DNA of 64,000 nt, from assembly GCA_017474285.1 (NCBI GenBank), contig JAFVHT010000001.1:1-64000 (forward strand), read 5' to 3'. The DNA comes from Acetobacter sp. (GTDB taxonomy: Bacteria > Pseudomonadota > Alphaproteobacteria > Acetobacterales > Acetobacteraceae). Shown piece after piece: positions 4,087 to 26,290 of this stretch. Numbering within the stretch: the stretch's first letter is position 1; each line of letters opens with the position of its first letter. Made by a program: the position numbers and the translations under genes. The notes beneath the pieces were generated by a model. The model ran no database searches and was not told where the DNA came from. It worked only from the letters and a program-made list of their open reading frames with translations.

Positions 4087-6756
4087 GTGCTAGGTCATTA
4101 CCTATTAGGAAATGAGGAACCCGTTTCATTGGTGCGTACACAGTCTTCAGATCACAATGATGAGATAACTTTCCATGAAAAAGGGAAGATACGTCTTTGG
4201 TTGGAAAGGGGGGGTGGACTTGCCTTTTTTGGATTAGCTCTTGCGTTTTTTCTCGCCTTAGTTACTTATAACCCTGCGGATCCTTCATTAGATGTCGCCA
4301 CGTCTCATCCGCCTACGAATTTATTAGGGAGAATTGGGGCTATTTTAGCAGATAGTCTTTTTCAAGGTGTAGGCGGTGGTGCATTAGTTCCCGTGTTTAT
4401 TTTGAGTGCATGGGGGTGGCTTTTACTCGGTCATCGCTTAATAGGGCGTGAGATAAAATTTATTTTGATGATGCGCGTTTTTGCAGCTTTGTGTCTTTTG
4501 CCTCTTTCAGGTGGGTTGCTTGCAGCTATTTCATTATTATTCCCAATTTTTCCTCCAATAAATTGGCCATCGACTGCAGGGATTGGTGGAGGTATAGGGT
4601 ATTCTATTGCACAGATTACGATAGCAGCTGGGGTGTCTGTATTCGGTTCTATAGGAGGGATGGTTGTATGGATTATAGGGGTTGTATTATTTGTTTTGTT
4701 GTTTGTGTTGGCGACGGGGTTAAGTCGGCGTGAATGGTTTTTCGTTGGTTCTGTGTGGTTCTGGCTTTTAAAGCTGCCATTTAGAATAATATGGGGTGTT
4801 GTGAAATGTTTTTATAAAAAGGATATACCCTCCTCTTCAACAAAGAAAAAAACATATATCCATCAAGCTGACCAATATGTTGACGAGAGTGTACCTTATG
4901 AGCGTGTACCATTAGTCGTTTCTAGTACTGTTTCTAACCGTAATCAAGATAAAAAAATTATATCTTCTCCTGATCATGGAATGTCTGTTGTGATGAAGAG
5001 TGTTCCAAATGAGGAGACACATCGTAGTATTGTTGTTTATGATCCGGATAAAAAACCTGTCGTGTATCAAGAGGTTTTGCTGCCTGCTCGTGGCACATCT
5101 GTGACAACCACGACAACATCTTTACCTTCGGTACTATCTAGGCAAGAAAAACCTGTCCGTAAAGGTTCGTTAAAGCAGTTTTTTTCTGTTCCGCGTTCAC
5201 GTCAAGAAAAAGTGGTTCACTCGCAAGTAGAGCATCAAACAGGGTGGCAATTGCCTTCTCTTTCTTTATTGCATCCTATGCCATCTCACAGACAGTCTGG
5301 TCCGTCACTAGAGTTGATTCAGGCAACAGCACGGTTATTAGAACAGGTTTTTGCTGATTATGGTGTGCATGGAAAAATTGTTGGTTATAGTGCAGGACCA
5401 GTTGTCACACTATACGAGCTTGAGCCAGCAGCAGGTATACGAGCCGCTCGCATTATTGGGTTGGCTGATGATGTTGCACGCTCTCTTTCTGTACTGAGTG
5501 TACGAATTGCTACGGTGCCCGGGCGGAATGTTATGGGTATTGAAGTGCCTAATCATATACGTGAAACGGTTTATTTATCCGAATTATTAAGCCAGCCAAG
5601 TTGGCAGGAAGATCCAAGTCAGTTGCTTTTGGCTTTAGGGAAGGATATCGCTGGCAATCCTGTTTTTAGTGATTTGGCGCGAATGCCACATCTTTTAGTG
5701 GCAGGAACAACAGGATCTGGTAAATCAGTAGGCGTTAATGCCATGATTCTTTCATTGTTGTACCGATTATCTCCTGATGAGTGTCGCCTTATCATGATTG
5801 ACCCTAAAGTGTTAGAGCTTTCTATTTATGATGGTATTCCGCATTTATTAACGCCTGTTGTAACAGAACCTTCAAAAGCTGTGAACGCGTTAAAATGGGT
5901 TGTTCGAGAAATGGATCGTCGTTATCGCACGATGGCTCATATGCAGGTGCGTAATATTACAGGCTATAATGCGCGGGCCGCTGAGATTCTTACCACGCAA
6001 GAAATGGTTGTGCGTCGTGTGCAAACAGGATTCGATCCCGAAACGGGGCATCCTATTTTTGAGGAACAATCTATTTCTGTTGAGCCGATGCCTTATATTG
6101 TCGTTGTTATTGATGAAATGGCTGATTTAATGATGACAGCTGGTAAGGAAATTGATGCTTGTGTACAACGCTTAGCACAAAAAGCACGTGCGGCGGGGAT
6201 TCATGTGATTATGGCAACACAACGCCCATCTGTAGATGTGATTACGGGTACAATTAAAGCGAATTTCCCAACACGTATTTCTTTTCAGGTCATTAGTAAA
6301 TTTGATAGTCGTACGATTTTAGGCGAACAGGGAGCAGAACAGCTTTTGGGGCAGGGAGATATGCTCTTTATGCAAGGGGGGGGGCGTATTATGCGCGTTC
6401 ATGGACCCTTTGTTGCCGATAGCGAAGTGGAACAGGTTGTTAATTTTTTGAAAGAACAGGGTGAACCCGTTTATGATGATGAAGTTCTTGCTGATTTTTC
6501 AGAAGGAAGTGGAGGATCTTCTGGCGGAAGTCGTGGTAATAATAAGGTAGAGGGAGGAGAAAATGACCTCTATCGTGAAGCGGTAGCTATTGTTGTACAA
6601 GAAGGTAAAGCGTCGACGTCGTTTATTCAACGTCATCTTTCTATTGGGTATAATCGGGCAGCAAAGATTATTGAACAAATGGAAAAAGAGGGCGTTATTA
6701 GCCCAGCTGATCATGTAGGGCGGCGTAAGGTTTTGTTAGGCACGAATAGGGAGTAA
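4087..6756 (+). CDS. ftsK: DNA translocase FtsK
   Basis: FtsK pumps chromosome ends across the division septum and activates dimer resolution. The 889-residue product has a short cytoplasmic start, four membrane segments (about residues 35-215), a linker of about 180 residues, and the motor. Walker A is GTTGSGKS near residue 540, followed by the Walker B stretch YIVVVIDEMADLMM and the conserved MATQRPSVDVITG. The C-terminal gamma domain (from LYREAVAIVV) is a winged helix that reads KOPS-type DNA. Start is GTG 4087. A run of nine G lies in the MQGGGRIMR codons (about 6375-6383). Intact and full length. Confidence 0.97.
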   Translation: MLGHYLLGNEEPVSLVRTQSSDHNDEITFHEKGKIRLWLERGGGLAFFGLALAFFLALVTYNPADPSLDVATSHPPTNLLGRIGAILADSLFQGVGGGALVPVFILSAWGWLLLGHRLIGREIKFILMMRVFAALCLLPLSGGLLAAISLLFPIFPPINWPSTAGIGGGIGYSIAQITIAAGVSVFGSIGGMVVWIIGVVLFVLLFVLATGLSRREWFFVGSVWFWLLKLPFRIIWGVVKCFYKKDIPSSSTKKKTYIHQADQYVDESVPYERVPLVVSSTVSNRNQDKKIISSPDHGMSVVMKSVPNEETHRSIVVYDPDKKPVVYQEVLLPARGTSVTTTTTSLPSVLSRQEKPVRKGSLKQFFSVPRSRQEKVVHSQVEHQTGWQLPSLSLLHPMPSHRQSGPSLELIQATARLLEQVFADYGVHGKIVGYSAGPVVTLYELEPAAGIRAARIIGLADDVARSLSVLSVRIATVPGRNVMGIEVPNHIRETVYLSELLSQPSWQEDPSQLLLALGKDIAGNPVFSDLARMPHLLVAGTTGSGKSVGVNAMILSLLYRLSPDECRLIMIDPKVLELSIYDGIPHLLTPVVTEPSKAVNALKWVVREMDRRYRTMAHMQVRNITGYNARAAEILTTQEMVVRRVQTGFDPETGHPIFEEQSISVEPMPYIVVVIDEMADLMMTAGKEIDACVQRLAQKARAAGIHVIMATQRPSVDVITGTIKANFPTRISFQVISKFDSRTILGEQGAEQLLGQGDMLFMQGGGRIMRVHGPFVADSEVEQVVNFLKEQGEPVYDDEVLADFSEGSGGSSGGSRGNNKVEGGENDLYREAVAIVVQEGKASTSFIQRHLSIGYNRAAKIIEQMEKEGVISPADHVGRRKVLLGTNRE

Positions 6757-6815: not shown

Positions 6816-7012
6816 ATGATACTTAATAAAAGCCTTGCTTTAGCTTTAATCTTCTTTTTTTTGTCTTGCTATCTCTTTCGCTGTTTGCTGTTTATTTGAA
6901 AGCAATACAATCAAAGATGACGTATTGCCTTTAGATAAACATGGTTTTTTTTGGTTATTTGTTTATAACTTCTTTGGCTGTTTGTATTTTTAGCGAAGTA
7001 TAAGCATTGAGT
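6816..7012 (+). pseudogene. Remnant of an exported-protein gene after ftsK, possibly lolA
   Basis: An ATG at 6816 opens a signal-peptide-like sequence (MILNKSLALALIFFF), but a run of eight T (about 6854-6861) puts the frame out and it stops after 27 codons. With one T fewer the frame would continue through CLAISFAVCCLFESNTIKDD to a stop near 7012. In many alphaproteobacteria lolA, the periplasmic lipoprotein carrier, follows ftsK directly. Here the restriction-modification gene occupies that place on the other strand. I infer a truncated lolA; only the signal peptide and the position support it. Confidence 0.35.
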
Positions 7013-10000
7013 GCATGAACAACTTGTTTTGATAAGGCAGTCATCAGATCTTGCATAAAATCAAAGGCGATTTGGTTATTGATTGTAGGAAGGGTTATTT
7101 TACAATTAATCAGAGCATCTAATTTATAACCGCCTTGCTGCCCATTGTATTGTGAAACAAATTTTTGAATATGTGTTATTATGTAATAAATTACATGTTT
7201 ATTCCATTTGAAAAGAGGTTTTAGTTTATTGATATTTTGTGAAGTGTAATAAGGTTCACTTTGAAATTTTACATATTTATATTGCCCTATTACCGTAGCA
7301 GTAATAGTGTCTTTTTCATTTGGAGGAAAATTTTGCAAATCAATTTTTCCTTTTACTCCGTTGTTATCATTTACTCTACCAACAAAATTAATTCCTGTAT
7401 CTTTAAAAGACAATTTACCTTCGTCTAATGACTTTGTGCCACTTACCTCAAACAACTCCCCAATCTTATATTCTTTCCAACAAACAGTTAAGCGACTATT
7501 AGCCCCCCCCCCCCCGCTATTATAGTCTGTATCTAAAAATGTATTAAGGGCTATTTGTTCGTTTTGAGTTAATGTCGTATCTTTTAAACCACTAGCTTGT
7601 AAGTATGCCTCTAACTCTTGAATCCTTTCTTGCTCTAACTCTTGAATCCTTTCTTGCTCTAACTCTTGAATATATGCCTCCATGTAATCAAAAGCAATTT
7701 GATCGTTTATGGTAGGTAACTTAATAGATATTTCTTTCGCAATATTTCTATTAAATTTGTTCCCATAATTAAAATTCATATAATAAGCTGTTTTTTTAAA
7801 TAAGCTTAGAAAAAATAAATATGAATGTTTTCCCCATGAATCTTTATACTCGCCTTTAGGATACATTCCTTGAACATGAGAATAACCAACAAATGGTTTG
7901 TCTTGATAGAATATTGCATCATGGGAAGCTGTATCGCTAAAGGTTATTATATTTCCATCTTCTGTATTATCTAAATTTGTATATCCTGTAATACCATTAT
8001 TGCAACTCGAATTTGTAACAACGCTATTTTTTCCATTTTCCGTAAAAAGACCAGAATTAGTTAGTTTATACGCTTTTGTGGGGTGTATATCAAACAACTC
8101 CCCAATTCTATATTCTCTCCAATCTCCCCCGTTTGCCTTGAAAGTTTCTTCAAGGCAAACGAGGGCTTGAGGCTTTCCCAATATTTTTCCTCTATCTTTT
8201 AAAATATTAGAGACTTCCCATGATAAATAATCAGCAATTGTTTTTTTGAAATCACATAAGTTAGGTTTGGTATCTATCTTTTGATGAGTATCAAAGTTCC
8301 AATCAGATCCGCTGTCATTGATAAAATCTTCAATATAAACAGATTTTAAATCCCAAGAGGCTTTGAGTTTGGCTGAGAAACCATTTTTATAAATTTGCAC
8401 GACATCGCTATATCTCTCAGTTGGCGAGTCTATTTCTTTTAAGCCTCTGTCTGTTCTCTTGTACCCATCATTGCGAAAATCAATAAATTTTACTATTTTG
8501 TCATAATCATGTGGCACACCACTTTCAAAGACATAGATACTTGTTTGCACGCCTGCCATTGGTTCAAATAGATCAATGGGCATTTTGATACTTGCTTTAA
8601 GCGTGTGTCTTGATAAGATTTCTTTATTAGTTCTTATTGCCTTGCCACTTCCTGCGGAATCTTGAATGATAATAGCTCCTAATGAATGTTTTGGCATATT
8701 ATCAAGCCCTAATTTGATAAAAGGCATACCATTTTCAGAGTGGCTAAAGGGAGGATTAAGCAATAATCTATCTGCTTGAAAGTCTTTAATGATAGTATTT
8801 AGTGTGCCATCTAAACTATCACCCTTGTGGATCTTACAGCTCCCATCGCCTCGCAAAATCATATTTGTCGTCGCCAAAGCAAACATTGAAGCATTTAACT
8901 CTACGCCTAAGAGCTGATGTTGCTTGATATGATTGATTTTTTCTTGATAATCTTTGCTGTCCTCTATAAAAGTTTTTTTGACTTGATCACTCATTAATTG
9001 CATGGAAGCAATTAAAAATCCTGCAGAACCCATGGCCAAATCCATGACTTTGCTCTCGTGATTTATTTCTAAAATTTCTGCCATCATTTTTGTAATATAA
9101 GGAGGTGTGAGAACGATCCCAAGCTCCTTGCCATCTCCTAGGGCATATTTTAGAAATTCAGAATAGCATTCACCCATAATATCTACATAGCTACTGAAAT
9201 TAAAGCCCTCCATTTTGCTATAGATATTATTATAGATATAAGTAAAAATCTGTTTGTTAAGACTTGCGTCTTTTTCTATAGCCTTTGATACTAAAGGATC
9301 AAGAGATTTAGACTTATCCCTGTCTGGATCTTTGCAGATTTCTTGAAAGGTATGGCGGACTAAGTTCAATTTGTCTAAATCAGTAATTTTTGTTTTTAAA
9401 AATTCCTCAATGCGATTATAGATTAAAATACCATCTCGTTGGTTATTTAAGGAAGAGCCTTTAAGATCAGAAGGAATAAGTCCTCTTTCTGTATCTATAT
9501 TCTGCATACCAAGTAACATACCTGATACATAAATGACTCTTTCCGGTGCGAGAATGTTATGATTCTGCATGAGTTTATTTAGTTTTTTGGCATGTTCTTG
9601 TAAATCAAGCGAAGTCCTAATAAGGATTTGATGTTTTCTCTCTTCTGTTAGAGTGCAAGTATGATAAAACTTTTCAAAAGTTTCTTGATTTTTTAAGAAA
9701 TCCAAAGAGTGTAAAGGTGCAAATAAATAAGCCTCATTGGCACTTCCTTGCACTAAAACAACCTTGATTTTAACATTTTCTTTATTATCCCCTGCAATAC
9801 CGATAGCAAAGGCTTGTCTATATTTACCACTAGCAATGGCTCCTCTTGCATAGTGCAGGGCACCATTAATGGCATAATTTTTTATGCTTTTTTCATCTGT
9901 CTTTAAAACATCACCATTTAAAGCCTCAAGCTTTGTTAGGCTAAACTTACTTTCTATAAAAACAGGGCAGGGATAAGATTCGTGATGATCTGTATAAGTA

Positions 10001-10203
10001 TATTTTTCAAGGACAAAATCAGGAACGCCCACGCCGCTTTTTTTATCTGTCTTGCTATAACCCTTGAGTGCGTCTTTTAGATAATCTGAGCCATCTTTTT
10101 CAAAAAAATCTTTGCCTTTTATTAAGCCTAAATTTTTTAACTTATCTTTGACGTAATCATCAACGTCATTTTCCTTACTCCAGCTTGTTTCTATCTCAGC
10201 CAC
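6955..10203 (-). CDS. Fused type IIG / Type I-like restriction-modification enzyme (nuclease, N6-adenine methylase, two specificity domains)
   Basis: A single 1082-residue chain combines cleavage, methylation and recognition. Residues about 60-86 show a PD...ESK nuclease motif (PD at 61-62, ESK at 84-86). The gamma-class adenine methylase has TPPYITKMM (about 366), the SAM site DLAMGSAGF (about 388-396) and NPPF (483-486). Two specificity domains follow, beginning WREYRIGELF and WKEYKIGELF, each ending in LPTIN(D/N)QIAFD. Between them lie eight-residue repeats (IQELEQER, from 24-base repeats) and a GGGG encoded by a 13-G tract. The gene is AT-rich compared with neighbours, and the style is common in Helicobacter and Campylobacter, suggesting horizontal transfer. 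It reads ON at this tract length. Confidence 0.88.
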   Translation of the reverse strand: MAEIETSWSKENDVDDYVKDKLKNLGLIKGKDFFEKDGSDYLKDALKGYSKTDKKSGVGVPDFVLEKYTYTDHHESYPCPVFIESKFSLTKLEALNGDVLKTDEKSIKNYAINGALHYARGAIASGKYRQAFAIGIAGDNKENVKIKVVLVQGSANEAYLFAPLHSLDFLKNQETFEKFYHTCTLTEERKHQILIRTSLDLQEHAKKLNKLMQNHNILAPERVIYVSGMLLGMQNIDTERGLIPSDLKGSSLNNQRDGILIYNRIEEFLKTKITDLDKLNLVRHTFQEICKDPDRDKSKSLDPLVSKAIEKDASLNKQIFTYIYNNIYSKMEGFNFSSYVDIMGECYSEFLKYALGDGKELGIVLTPPYITKMMAEILEINHESKVMDLAMGSAGFLIASMQLMSDQVKKTFIEDSKDYQEKINHIKQHQLLGVELNASMFALATTNMILRGDGSCKIHKGDSLDGTLNTIIKDFQADRLLLNPPFSHSENGMPFIKLGLDNMPKHSLGAIIIQDSAGSGKAIRTNKEILSRHTLKASIKMPIDLFEPMAGVQTSIYVFESGVPHDYDKIVKFIDFRNDGYKRTDRGLKEIDSPTERYSDVVQIYKNGFSAKLKASWDLKSVYIEDFINDSGSDWNFDTHQKIDTKPNLCDFKKTIADYLSWEVSNILKDRGKILGKPQALVCLEETFKANGGDWREYRIGELFDIHPTKAYKLTNSGLFTENGKNSVVTNSSCNNGITGYTNLDNTEDGNIITFSDTASHDAIFYQDKPFVGYSHVQGMYPKGEYKDSWGKHSYLFFLSLFKKTAYYMNFNYGNKFNRNIAKEISIKLPTINDQIAFDYMEAYIQELEQERIQELEQERIQELEAYLQASGLKDTTLTQNEQIALNTFLDTDYNSGGGGANSRLTVCWKEYKIGELFEVSGTKSLDEGKLSFKDTGINFVGRVNDNNGVKGKIDLQNFPPNEKDTITATVIGQYKYVKFQSEPYYTSQNINKLKPLFKWNKHVIYYIITHIQKFVSQYNGQQGGYKLDALINCKITLPTINNQIAFDFMQDLMTALSKQVVHALNAYTSLKIQTAKEVINK
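7503..7515 (-). repeat. 13-base G tract inside the restriction-modification gene
   Basis: Thirteen C on the plus strand, G on the coding strand, at codons about 897-900, just before the second specificity domain. One extra G gives GGC-TAA at once; one fewer gives four codons then TAA. Tract slippage would therefore remove the second recognition domain. Confidence 0.9.
7611..7670 (-). repeat. Two and a half in-frame 24-base tandem repeats in the specificity linker
   Basis: Perfect 24-base units at 7611-7634 and 7635-7658, with a 12-base third part. Each encodes the eight residues IQELEQER. They sit in the helical spacer between the two recognition domains, where repeat number can change the spacing of the recognised half-sites. 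Confidence 0.9.
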
Positions 10204-23702: not shown

Positions 23703-24709
23703 TTAAGCGATGAGAGAGGTTGTTGGTGTTTTAGGCGTGTTATTTCCCAAAGAAGAATTTTGCCCCATAGAAGAAGACGTATAAGGAGATACTTTGAGAG
23801 ACGTATTCTGTTGCGCGACAACTTTATGAGCTTGGTCAGCATTTTTATCGGTTTTGTCCATCTTTTTGGGAGGGGTGTTAAAAAGCTCCTTGACCATTTG
23901 TGCATTGAGGTCACTTTTGTTTTCAGCTAAGGAAAATGTCCGCGCATTGTTGTCAATTTTAGTGAGCGTGTAAGAAAAGGAGGCTTGAGCACTTTCACCT
24001 CTCAAATTACCGTTAGCATTTTGTCCTATTGATGATGAAGCCGTTGCGGTCGATTGTAAGCGATAGCCGTTAGCGTTATGACTCACCGAAGATGGGTCTA
24101 GCGCTATGCTGGGCATCGTAGATGCAGAGGCTTGAAAATTTGTTGATAGAGAGAAAGAGGCATATGTACTGCCATTTTGATTGACACCCTCAGCCATTGA
24201 AACAGAAATGTTCGTAAAATTGACAGGGTTCGCGCTTAATACCTCAATTGTATAAGAAAATTCACTTGCGTTGCTGCTTTGCGCCATAGACGCTGAAAAA
24301 TAAACGCCATACACGCCCGCACTACTGCCAAATAAAGATTGGCTTTGTGCCGCAGAAAGAGAAAGTTCAAAATTTGTTGAGAGGCTATTGTTTGTTTGGC
24401 TCGTTTCTTCCTGAAAACTTCATAGAAGAAGACGCTGTTTGCGCATTTGTTTGTTGGGAATTTTGCGTTGTTGAGGTTGTAACACTGTTTATGACGGCGC
24501 CTAGAGCGTTATAAACGTGTATTCCCCCCCCCCATTTTGATCACGTTGTGAGGCGTGGGAAAGTTGTATGGTATCCTGATTCTGGTTATCAGAGGGTTTA
24601 GCATGTTCTGACAGAGAATCCACACCATGATGTTTAGCATCGCTGTTCATGCCATTCATAAAAGAGGCCGTCATCGACCATGACAGGTTGTTCGGTGTAA
24701 CAGATGTCA
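23703..24709 (-). pseudogene. Broken gene for a Ser/Ala/Asn-rich protein, with a 10-G tract
   Basis: The start is probably ATG 24709 after AAGGAAA. The first segment (MTSVTPNNLSWSM...) runs into a 10-G tract and stops ten codons later. With 11 G it would continue through GIHVYNALGAVINSV to a stop near 24401. The long remainder, in a third frame open from about 24410 to 23703, is a low-complexity protein (ELSLSAAQSQSLFGSS, YGVYFSASMAQSS, STATASSSIGQNANG). A second shift near 24415 is therefore needed to join all parts. Composition suggests a secreted or surface protein; no family recognised. Confidence 0.5.
24524..24533 (-). repeat. 10-base G tract in the broken Ser-rich gene
   Basis: Ten C on the plus strand. 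Ten and nine G both end the frame early; eleven extends it by over 40 codons. Confidence 0.85.
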
Positions 24710-24913
24710 TAAAAGTTTCCTTATCCGTTAAAGAAAATTGTGCAACATAAAATAAGGGTTCTACCTTAACTGTTGCCACTGTATGAAAATATTAAACAAA
24801 AATTATTAAGAAGTTGTTAAGATCACACATGTTTTTACGATTTTTACGGGTTTTTGTTTTTTATGACAGTGTTGGAACGTATAATAACGTGTAATGATGT
24901 GTAGAAATCAAAA

Positions 24914-25645: not shown

Positions 25646-26290
25646 ATGAGTAGTCTTGAATATAATTTTACTAATGCATGGTTCAATGAAACAGAAAATA
25701 CAGGTGTATGGGATTCCCTTTTTGCGCAACTGAAGCCTACACGTGTTTTGGAGATTGGTTGTTTCGAGGGAAGAAGTACGAGTTACCTTATTGAGAAATT
25801 AGCTTCGTGTCGGGATATAGAGGTACATTGTGTTGATACCTGGGAGAGAGGCGAAGACGTTTATGCTCCAAATGGTTTGATAGAGCATGAATGGACTGCT
25901 GTTGAGGAACGCTTTCATTACAATATTAAAGTAGCACAAAGTAAGGTGAGCCATGTAGCTCAAGTTATTATTCATAAAAGTTTTAGTGATAGAGCGTTAC
26001 CGAAATTATTAGCAGAAGGGAAAGCTGGGTATTTTGACTTTATTTATATTGATGGATCGCATCAAGCGTCTGATGTGTTGTGTGATGCGGTATTAAGTTT
26101 CCGACTTTTGAGGGGGGGGGGAATTATAGGGTTTGATGACTATTTATGGCAAGAGCCATTACCATATGGTACGGATCCATTACGTTGTCCAAAACTCGCT
26201 ATAGACGCTTTTACAAATATCTATGCTCGTAAAACAAGGATTATGCTAGCACCATTATACCGGCTCTATGTGCAAAAATTAACAGATTAA
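25646..26290 (+). CDS. Class I SAM-dependent methyltransferase, probably phase-variable
   Basis: A 214-residue methyltransferase of the Methyltransf_24 type. The SAM site is VLEIGCFEGRSTSYL (about residues 34-48), an acidic end of strand 2 appears in VHCVDTW, and FDFIYIDGSHQASDVL followed by IIGFDDYLW are typical of O-methyltransferases acting on sugars or small molecules. A strong GGAGGAGG site precedes the ATG. The RGGG codons are made by a run of ten G; any one-base change ends the protein in two to five codons, removing the last fifth. It reads ON here. Acceptor unknown; a surface glycan is plausible. Confidence 0.82.
   Translation: MSSLEYNFTNAWFNETENTGVWDSLFAQLKPTRVLEIGCFEGRSTSYLIEKLASCRDIEVHCVDTWERGEDVYAPNGLIEHEWTAVEERFHYNIKVAQSKVSHVAQVIIHKSFSDRALPKLLAEGKAGYFDFIYIDGSHQASDVLCDAVLSFRLLRGGGIIGFDDYLWQEPLPYGTDPLRCPKLAIDAFTNIYARKTRIMLAPLYRLYVQKLTD
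26112..26121 (+). repeat. 10-base G tract in the methyltransferase gene
   Basis: Ten G in frame. Eleven gives N-Y-R-V-stop after the Gly codons, nine gives E-L-stop. Confidence 0.92.

What the first reader, a model, noticed from the sequence alone, without database searches (positions are those of the whole stretch)
7503..7515. A 13-G tract places the second specificity domain of a fused restriction enzyme under frame-slip control
The tract lies between the two recognition domains. One G more or fewer gives a stop within five codons, leaving nuclease, methylase and only the first recognition domain. In related half-specificity enzymes loss of one domain changes the DNA target rather than abolishing activity, so this could be a specificity switch instead of a plain on/off switch. 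Long G tracts in restriction-modification genes are well known in Helicobacter and Campylobacter, not in Acetobacteraceae-like bacteria.
Basis: partly seen in the sequence, partly recalled or inferred. Interest (0 to 1): 0.8.

Follow-up and report, generated by a model that had tools for sequence, protein, structure and literature searches.

The report
Slippery G-tract toggling restriction-enzyme target domain
A run of 13 G's sits exactly between the two DNA-reading domains of a one-piece restriction enzyme in an Acetobacter-like gut bacterium, so slippage of one G cuts the enzyme down to one reading domain and probably changes which DNA sequence it marks; the same arrangement is known, and partly proven, in Helicobacter, and it appears to have moved into this lineage from that group.

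Summary
Confirmed and largely right. The gene at 10203..6955 (minus strand, 1082 aa) is a single-chain nuclease, N6-adenine methylase and double specificity protein. The G13 tract encodes four glycines in a disordered linker, after TRD1 plus its conserved helix (CR1) and before TRD2. G12 gives 904 aa and G14 gives 901 aa. Both keep nuclease, methylase, TRD1 and CR1.

Comparison supports selection for slippage. The sister genome (goat abomasum MAG) has G12, out of frame. Two Helicobacteraceae-type relatives with near-identical RM parts have G11 (out of frame) and G10 (in frame). In 27 family loci from Campylobacterota, 23 long simple repeats (G8-16 or (GA)8-16) lie in 34 kb of specificity region, all placed at TRD-TRD junctions, and none in 54 kb of RM region. 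TRDs also swap positions: this TRD1 is 99% identical to the sister's TRD2.

The switch-of-target idea has a direct precedent: HpyUM032XIII in H. pylori (G12 = CYAN7TRG, G11 = CYAN7TTC). So this is a new member of a known kind, in an unexpected host (Alphaproteobacteria) and in one-chain form. Within-population length variation and activity of the short form here remain untested. An extension in relatives: three-TRD arrays with a slippery repeat at both junctions.

The parts
6955..10203 (-). Single-chain R-M-S gene, 1082 aa, GTG start, in frame at G13
9946..10023 (-). Nuclease motif PD(61-62)...ESK(84-86), PD-(D/E)XK type
   Evidence: read from translation; motif assignment is from general knowledge
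8737..9183 (-). N6_Mtase domain, residues 341-489 (includes NPPF motif)
   Evidence: Pfam PF02384, E 1.7e-27; profile match to RM.BsaXI 8w0p, E 9e-9
7708..8133 (-). TRD1, residues about 691-832
   Evidence: Pfam Methylase_S; AF2 model
7531..7692 (-). CR1 helices 838-870 and 880-891, kept in the truncated form
   Evidence: AF2 model
7609..7680 (-). 24-bp tandem repeat (QELEQERI) inside the CR1 helix; two perfect copies plus a partial here, one copy fewer in the sister genome
7503..7515 (-). G13 tract, residues 897-901, in the disordered linker 894-905
7499..7501 (-). Stop codon reached with 14 G (901 aa)
   Evidence: position read from sequence
7488..7490 (-). Stop codon reached with 12 G (904 aa)
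   Evidence: position read from sequence
7081..7482 (-). TRD2, residues about 908-1041; lost when out of frame; 83% identical to TRD1 of a Helicobacteraceae relative
6961..7065 (-). CR2 helix 1047-1081
8075..8122 (-). Direct repeat copy at the start of TRD1 (79% identical to 7433-7480), likely recombination site for TRD exchange
7433..7480 (-). Direct repeat copy at the start of TRD2

Best explanation
The gene is a single-chain BcgI/Type IIB-like restriction-modification enzyme whose second target recognition domain is a hypermutable on/off module. Replication slippage in the G13 tract moves TRD2-CR2 in or out of frame. In frame (G13, as here), one chain carries both TRDs and recognises an asymmetric two-part site. 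Out of frame (G12 or G14), the chain ends just after CR1; two such chains would pair through their CR1 helices into an (RM-half S)2 assembly that reads a palindrome made of the TRD1 half-site twice. A one-base slip would therefore change the methylated and cut sequence instead of silencing the enzyme. A 24-bp repeat in CR1 could also alter the gap between half-sites, and TRDs are exchanged between positions by recombination at flanking repeats. Shown: anatomy, truncation outcome, conserved placement of slippery repeats, tract-length and frame differences between genomes, TRD movement. Inferred: slippage in living populations, activity and palindromic site of the short form, spacer effect.
For: Truncation outcomes. 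Model: G4 in a disordered linker after a complete TRD1-CR1. Sister genome G015: G12, out of frame. L009 has G11 (out of frame) and L085 has G10 (in frame), with identical tract flanks; their RM parts sit on branch lengths of 0 and 0.0014 in the tree. 27 family loci: 23 long simple repeats in 34 kb of S region, none in 54 kb of RM region; some use (GA)8-16 instead of poly-G at the same junction. TRD1 of the window = TRD2 of G015 at 99% protein identity; TRD2 of the window = TRD1 of L009 at 83%. Homologous experiment: HpyUM032XIII G12 vs G11 (PMC4450513). BsaXI TRD1-CR1 active with a new site (PMC9159934). NgoAV (PMC9577141). A relative on an L. gasseri plasmid has RM followed by a natural 168-aa single-TRD S gene.
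Against: No reads, so slippage within a population is not seen, and the assembled length itself may be off by one. JHP1364/1365 of H. pylori was reported active only when the frameshift was corrected, and a lone TRD1 of the Type I JHP1422 was inactive. The direct precedents have a separate S subunit; here each short chain carries its own RM, so the geometry is not identical. The G015 copy also carries a 1-base deletion in the RM part and is split over two contigs, so it may be a decaying gene. Several family members lack any repeat at the junction.
Confidence: 0.66

Rival explanations
1. Plain phase-variable on/off switch: the tract slips, but the chain without TRD2 is inactive or unstable, so both cutting and methylation are lost together.
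For: JHP1364/1365 of H. pylori was active only with both TRDs; lone TRD1 of the Type I JHP1422 was inactive. Losing nuclease and methylase together would be harmless to the cell.
Against: HpyUM032XIII and BsaXI half-subunits are active. A tract meant only for shut-off could lie anywhere, yet all long repeats lie at TRD junctions and none in RM. The truncation leaves a complete TRD1-CR1.
Confidence: 0.24
2. The tract is real but now neutral: an inherited remnant from a Campylobacterota donor that no longer slips usefully in this host.
For: The gene looks foreign: 33.5% G+C against 41.3% for the window, absent from 47 of 49 same-genus genomes, relatives mainly in Campylobacterota.
Against: The tract differs in length and frame between the two host genomes. 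The host genome has 29 runs of 10 or more G against about 0.8 expected, and both hosts have a Type III mod gene with an out-of-frame G tract.
Confidence: 0.07
3. Assembly or sequencing artefact in a homopolymer; the true length is fixed or different.
For: Fragmented assembly (66 contigs); homopolymers are error-prone.
Against: The assembled length is exactly in frame across a 1082-aa ORF; a long tract stands at the same place in G015 and in many independent genomes.
Confidence: 0.03

Closest known systems
HpyUM032XIII (BcgI-like RM + S1/S2, Helicobacter pylori; HP1471/HP1472 locus type)
   Same: Poly-G tract between TRD1 and TRD2 sets whether one or two TRDs are made; experimentally a change of target, CYAN7TRG to CYAN7TTC (PMC4450513). 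Campylobacterota loci with RM about 56-57% identical to the window's carry G8-G13 at the same junction.
   Different: S is a separate gene there; here R, M and S are one chain. Host is an alphaproteobacterium. Sequence identity to the UM032 proteins themselves was not measured.
cj1051c/CjeI group, Campylobacter
   Same: Restriction-modification gene group with phase-variable members in several Campylobacter species (PMC6321876); recalled as a single-chain RMS enzyme of the AloI/CjeI kind.
   Different: Position of its tract relative to TRDs was not read here; different genus and TRDs.
NgoAV (Type I, Neisseria gonorrhoeae)
   Same: PolyG change fuses hsdS1 and hsdS2 and shifts the target from GCAN8TGC to GCAN7STCA (PMC9577141).
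   Different: Type I with separate R, M and S genes; not the same enzyme type.
JHP1272 / HP1353-1354 (Type IIG, H. pylori)
   Same: One-chain enzyme; a homopolymer near the C-terminal recognition region switches the target (PMC3936762).
   Different: MmeI-like recognition region with an added small domain, not a two-TRD S-like region.
BsaXI (Type IIB)
   Same: RM.BsaXI matched by profile (E 9e-9) and by fold (E 2e-11); TRD1-CR1 alone gives a symmetric new target.
   Different: Separate S subunit; no slippery tract reported in the paper read.

Membership tests
Type IIB / BcgI-like restriction-modification (including single-chain RMS) | Nuclease and N6-adenine methylase fused in one polypeptide | tested here: met
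   PD...ESK motif in translation, N6_Mtase, RM.BsaXI matched by profile and fold
Type IIB / BcgI-like restriction-modification (including single-chain RMS) | HsdS-like specificity region, TRD1-CR1-TRD2-CR2 | tested here: met
   Two Methylase_S stretches; TRD-helix-TRD-helix order in the model; Type I S structures 1ydx and 1yf2 matched by fold
Type IIB / BcgI-like restriction-modification (including single-chain RMS) | Cuts on both sides of a bipartite site and methylates both strands | not testable with these tools
   Needs biochemistry
Simple-repeat contingency (phase-variable) locus | Long mononucleotide tract inside the ORF, far above chance, where +/-1 truncates | tested here: met
Simple-repeat contingency (phase-variable) locus | Tract length varies between related genomes with a frame change | tested here: met
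   Window G13 in frame, G015 G12 out; L085 G10 in frame, L009 G11 out
Simple-repeat contingency (phase-variable) locus | Length variation within one population | not testable with these tools
   No reads available
HpyUM032XIII-type poly-G specificity switch | Poly-G between TRD1-CR1 and TRD2-CR2 | tested here: met
HpyUM032XIII-type poly-G specificity switch | Separate RM and S genes | tested here: not met
   R, M and S are one 1082-aa chain; it works like this system but is the fused form
HpyUM032XIII-type poly-G specificity switch | Short form active on a palindrome of the TRD1 half-site | not testable with these tools
   Needs a methylome
Type I R-M (NgoAV-like) | Separate HsdM, HsdS and ATP-driven HsdR translocase | tested here: not met
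   One chain; Pfam finds no helicase or HsdR domain in it

The most novel reading that the evidence does not exclude
The family as a whole is a frame-programmable array of target recognition domains: each TRD-TRD junction carries its own slippery repeat, poly-G or (GA)n. Members with three TRDs and two such junctions could make one-, two- or three-TRD enzymes, so a few independent slips plus TRD shuffling give a combinatorial set of methylomes. Relatives L110 ((GA)12 + G13), L111 (G9 + G8), L112 (G10 + G9, one 1381-codon frame) and L113 ((GA)8 + G13) show this layout; the window gene is the two-TRD version in an alphaproteobacterium.
Probability: 0.45. Interest if true: 0.66.

Novelty: new member of a known kind. 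Interest (0 to 1): 0.5.

Why it matters
It places a Helicobacter-style methylation switch in a gut Acetobacter lineage. Phase-variable methylomes would then extend to Alphaproteobacteria, probably by transfer between gut bacteria. The family-wide placement of two unrelated repeat types at TRD junctions is strong comparative evidence that the switch is selected for changing the target. Phase-variable 'on/off' calls for BcgI-like and RMS genes would need to be reread as 'target A/target B'.

Tried and rejected
Kinship tree of the RM part: the window branches within or at the base of a Campylobacterota clade, but the fork is weakly supported (82/73), so direction of transfer is inferred from distribution and base composition, not shown. 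A MADS2 defence-system hit (NCBIfam, 49 bits against a cut-off of 720) rejected as generic methylase similarity. RNA families near the gene: none. Promoter scan upstream: none above chance. Independent translation of TRD2 in the out-of-frame state: no obvious start codon near the tract (read), considered unlikely. Literature on phase variation in Acetobacter: nothing relevant found.

Full report
Observation. Positions 7503-7515 are 13 C on the + strand, hence G13 in the gene 10203..6955 on the minus strand, a 1082-aa open frame. The tract begins exactly at codon 897 and reads GGG four times. Changing its length in silico gives: G10, G13, G16 full length; G11 900 aa, G12 904 aa, G14 901 aa, G15 905 aa. 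From the gene's own dinucleotides the expected number of such runs is about 2e-5. The finding is real and in the stated place.

What the protein is. Pfam finds N6_Mtase (341-489) and two Methylase_S stretches. The N-terminus has a PD...ESK motif (residues 61-86, read). A profile of the family matches RM.BsaXI, a Type IIB enzyme (E 9e-9), and Type I M subunits. The AlphaFold2 model (mean pLDDT 79, pTM 0.54) matches Type I M and S structures and BsaXI by fold. It gives the order TRD1 (about 691-832), CR1 helices (838-870, 880-891), a disordered segment 894-905, TRD2 (908-1041) and CR2 (1047-1081). The four glycines of the tract lie in that disordered segment. Length changes in steps of three should therefore be tolerated, and a frameshift leaves nuclease, methylase, TRD1 and CR1 complete.

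Host and origin. The window lies in a 1.73-Mb, 66-contig assembly. Its nearest relative carrying the gene is G015, matched by the RGIG1504 record 'Acetobacter sp.', a goat abomasum MAG. Of 49 same-genus genomes only these two have the gene. It sits beside an ftsK-like gene in both. The gene has 33.5% G+C against 41.3% for the window. Good relatives (RM part 53-59% identical) are in Campylobacterota: 84 of 397 genomes match at 1e-60 or better. A plasmid of Lactobacillus gasseri also carries a relative (47%). Transfer into this lineage is likely; the direction is not settled by the tree.

Evidence for slippage and selection. (a) G015 has the same junction with G12, out of frame, ending ...YNSGGGGTIVA. 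(b) L009 and L085, two genomes with almost identical RM parts and identical tract flanks, have G11 (out of frame) and G10 (in frame). (c) In 27 family loci, long simple repeats (G/C of 8 or more, A/T of 10 or more, GA/TC of 7 or more units) number 23 in 34 kb of specificity region and none in 54 kb of RM region; all are placed where one TRD module ends and the next begins. (d) The repeat is usually poly-G but is (GA)8-16 in five loci (L082, L088, L097, L098, L104), so different repeat types occupy the same place. (e) The host genome has 29 runs of 10 or more G where about 0.8 is expected, some at or near contig ends, which is compatible with, but does not prove, length variation.

TRD movement. 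The window's TRD1 is 99% identical to TRD2 of G015. The window's TRD2 is 83% identical to TRD1 of L009. The remaining cross-comparisons are mostly 28-50%. Direct repeats of 48 nt (79% identical) flank the starts of TRD1 and TRD2 in the window. This is the DOMO pattern described for H. pylori S genes, including a Type IIG system (PMC3077401). A 24-bp repeat in CR1 (QELEQERI) has one copy fewer in G015; by analogy with the EcoR124 TAEL repeats (PMC3874165) it may set the gap between half-sites (inference).

How it most likely works. The strongest precedent is HpyUM032XIII, a BcgI-like system of H. pylori. With G12 the S gene is split; RM plus the first half alone methylates the palindrome CYAN7TRG. 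With G11 the halves are fused and the target becomes CYAN7TTC (PMC4450513). A study of HP1471 proposed the same model for a G13 tract between TRDs (PMC4209511). BsaXI TRD1-CR1 alone yields ACN5GT (PMC9159934). NgoAV shows the Type I version (PMC9577141). In the window's single-chain form each short chain brings its own RM, so a dimer would have two RM and two half-S modules, the composition expected of an active enzyme. Against this, one H. pylori allele was active only when fused, and a lone TRD1 of the Type I JHP1422 was inactive. I put the target-switch reading at about two in three and a plain on/off switch at about one in four.

Beyond the window. Four relatives have three TRDs with slippery repeats at both junctions: L110 ((GA)12 and G13, all in frame), L113 ((GA)8 and G13, first junction out of frame), L111 (G9 and G8, second out of frame) and L112 (G10 and G9, one 1381-codon frame). 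S subunits with three TRDs are known in H. pylori Type I (PMC3936762). I found no report of slippery repeats at every junction in the papers read, but the search was limited to an open-access library.

Verdict. Observation confirmed and interpretation supported with direct precedent. New member of a known kind; the novelty lies in the host, the one-chain form and the family-wide pattern.

Noticed in passing
G000:C41:20730-20742 (L046 3031-3043) and G015 C42 (L070 3023-3033): Type III Mod genes (N6_N4_Mtase, with a T3RM_EcoP15I_C domain in L046) in both genomes, about 36% identical to each other, have G13 and G11 at the same point and are both out of frame: a second candidate phase-variable methylase in this lineage.
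   Followed up: partly
L110, L111, L112, L113: Campylobacterota relatives with three TRDs and a slippery repeat (poly-G or GA) at both TRD junctions.
   Followed up: partly
L082, L088, L097, L098, L104: The TRD1/TRD2 junction carries (GA)8-16 instead of poly-G.
   Followed up: yes
L116 5012-5518 (Lactobacillus gasseri plasmid pHL20_1): RM gene related to the window's (47%) followed by a natural one-TRD S gene of 168 aa, a standing half-specificity system.
   Followed up: partly
G000 whole genome, e.g. L037 1382-1392, L045 1975-1985, L036 3045-3055, L033 3088-3105: Long G/C tracts at the start of a GPR1/FUN34/YaaH-family gene, 7 bp before an aldehyde dehydrogenase ORF, inside a GNAT-family gene, and an 18-base tract between genes: a possible broad set of phase-variable genes.
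   Followed up: partly
G000:C48:1-15, C49:28 and 14856, C9:262, C38:59 and 194: Several G tracts lie at or near contig ends, possibly because mixed tract lengths broke the assembly.
   Followed up: no
L059 (G015 C24): The sister genome's copy has a 1-base deletion in the methylase part, not in a repeat, so that copy may be inactive or misassembled.
   Followed up: partly
window 24524-24533 and 26112-26121: Two further G10 tracts in the window: one near the end of a short ORF (24501-24779 -) with a frame change behind it, the other in frame inside a 214-aa ORF resembling a methyltransferase.
   Followed up: no
L113, reverse-complement position 6690: Directly downstream of the three-TRD system a frame with a TSPPY-type methylase motif also carries a G13 tract.
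   Followed up: no
L114 9915-15141 (G000:C55 about 73915-79141): A Type I restriction system (R, S, M) lies on the same contig as the window.
   Followed up: no
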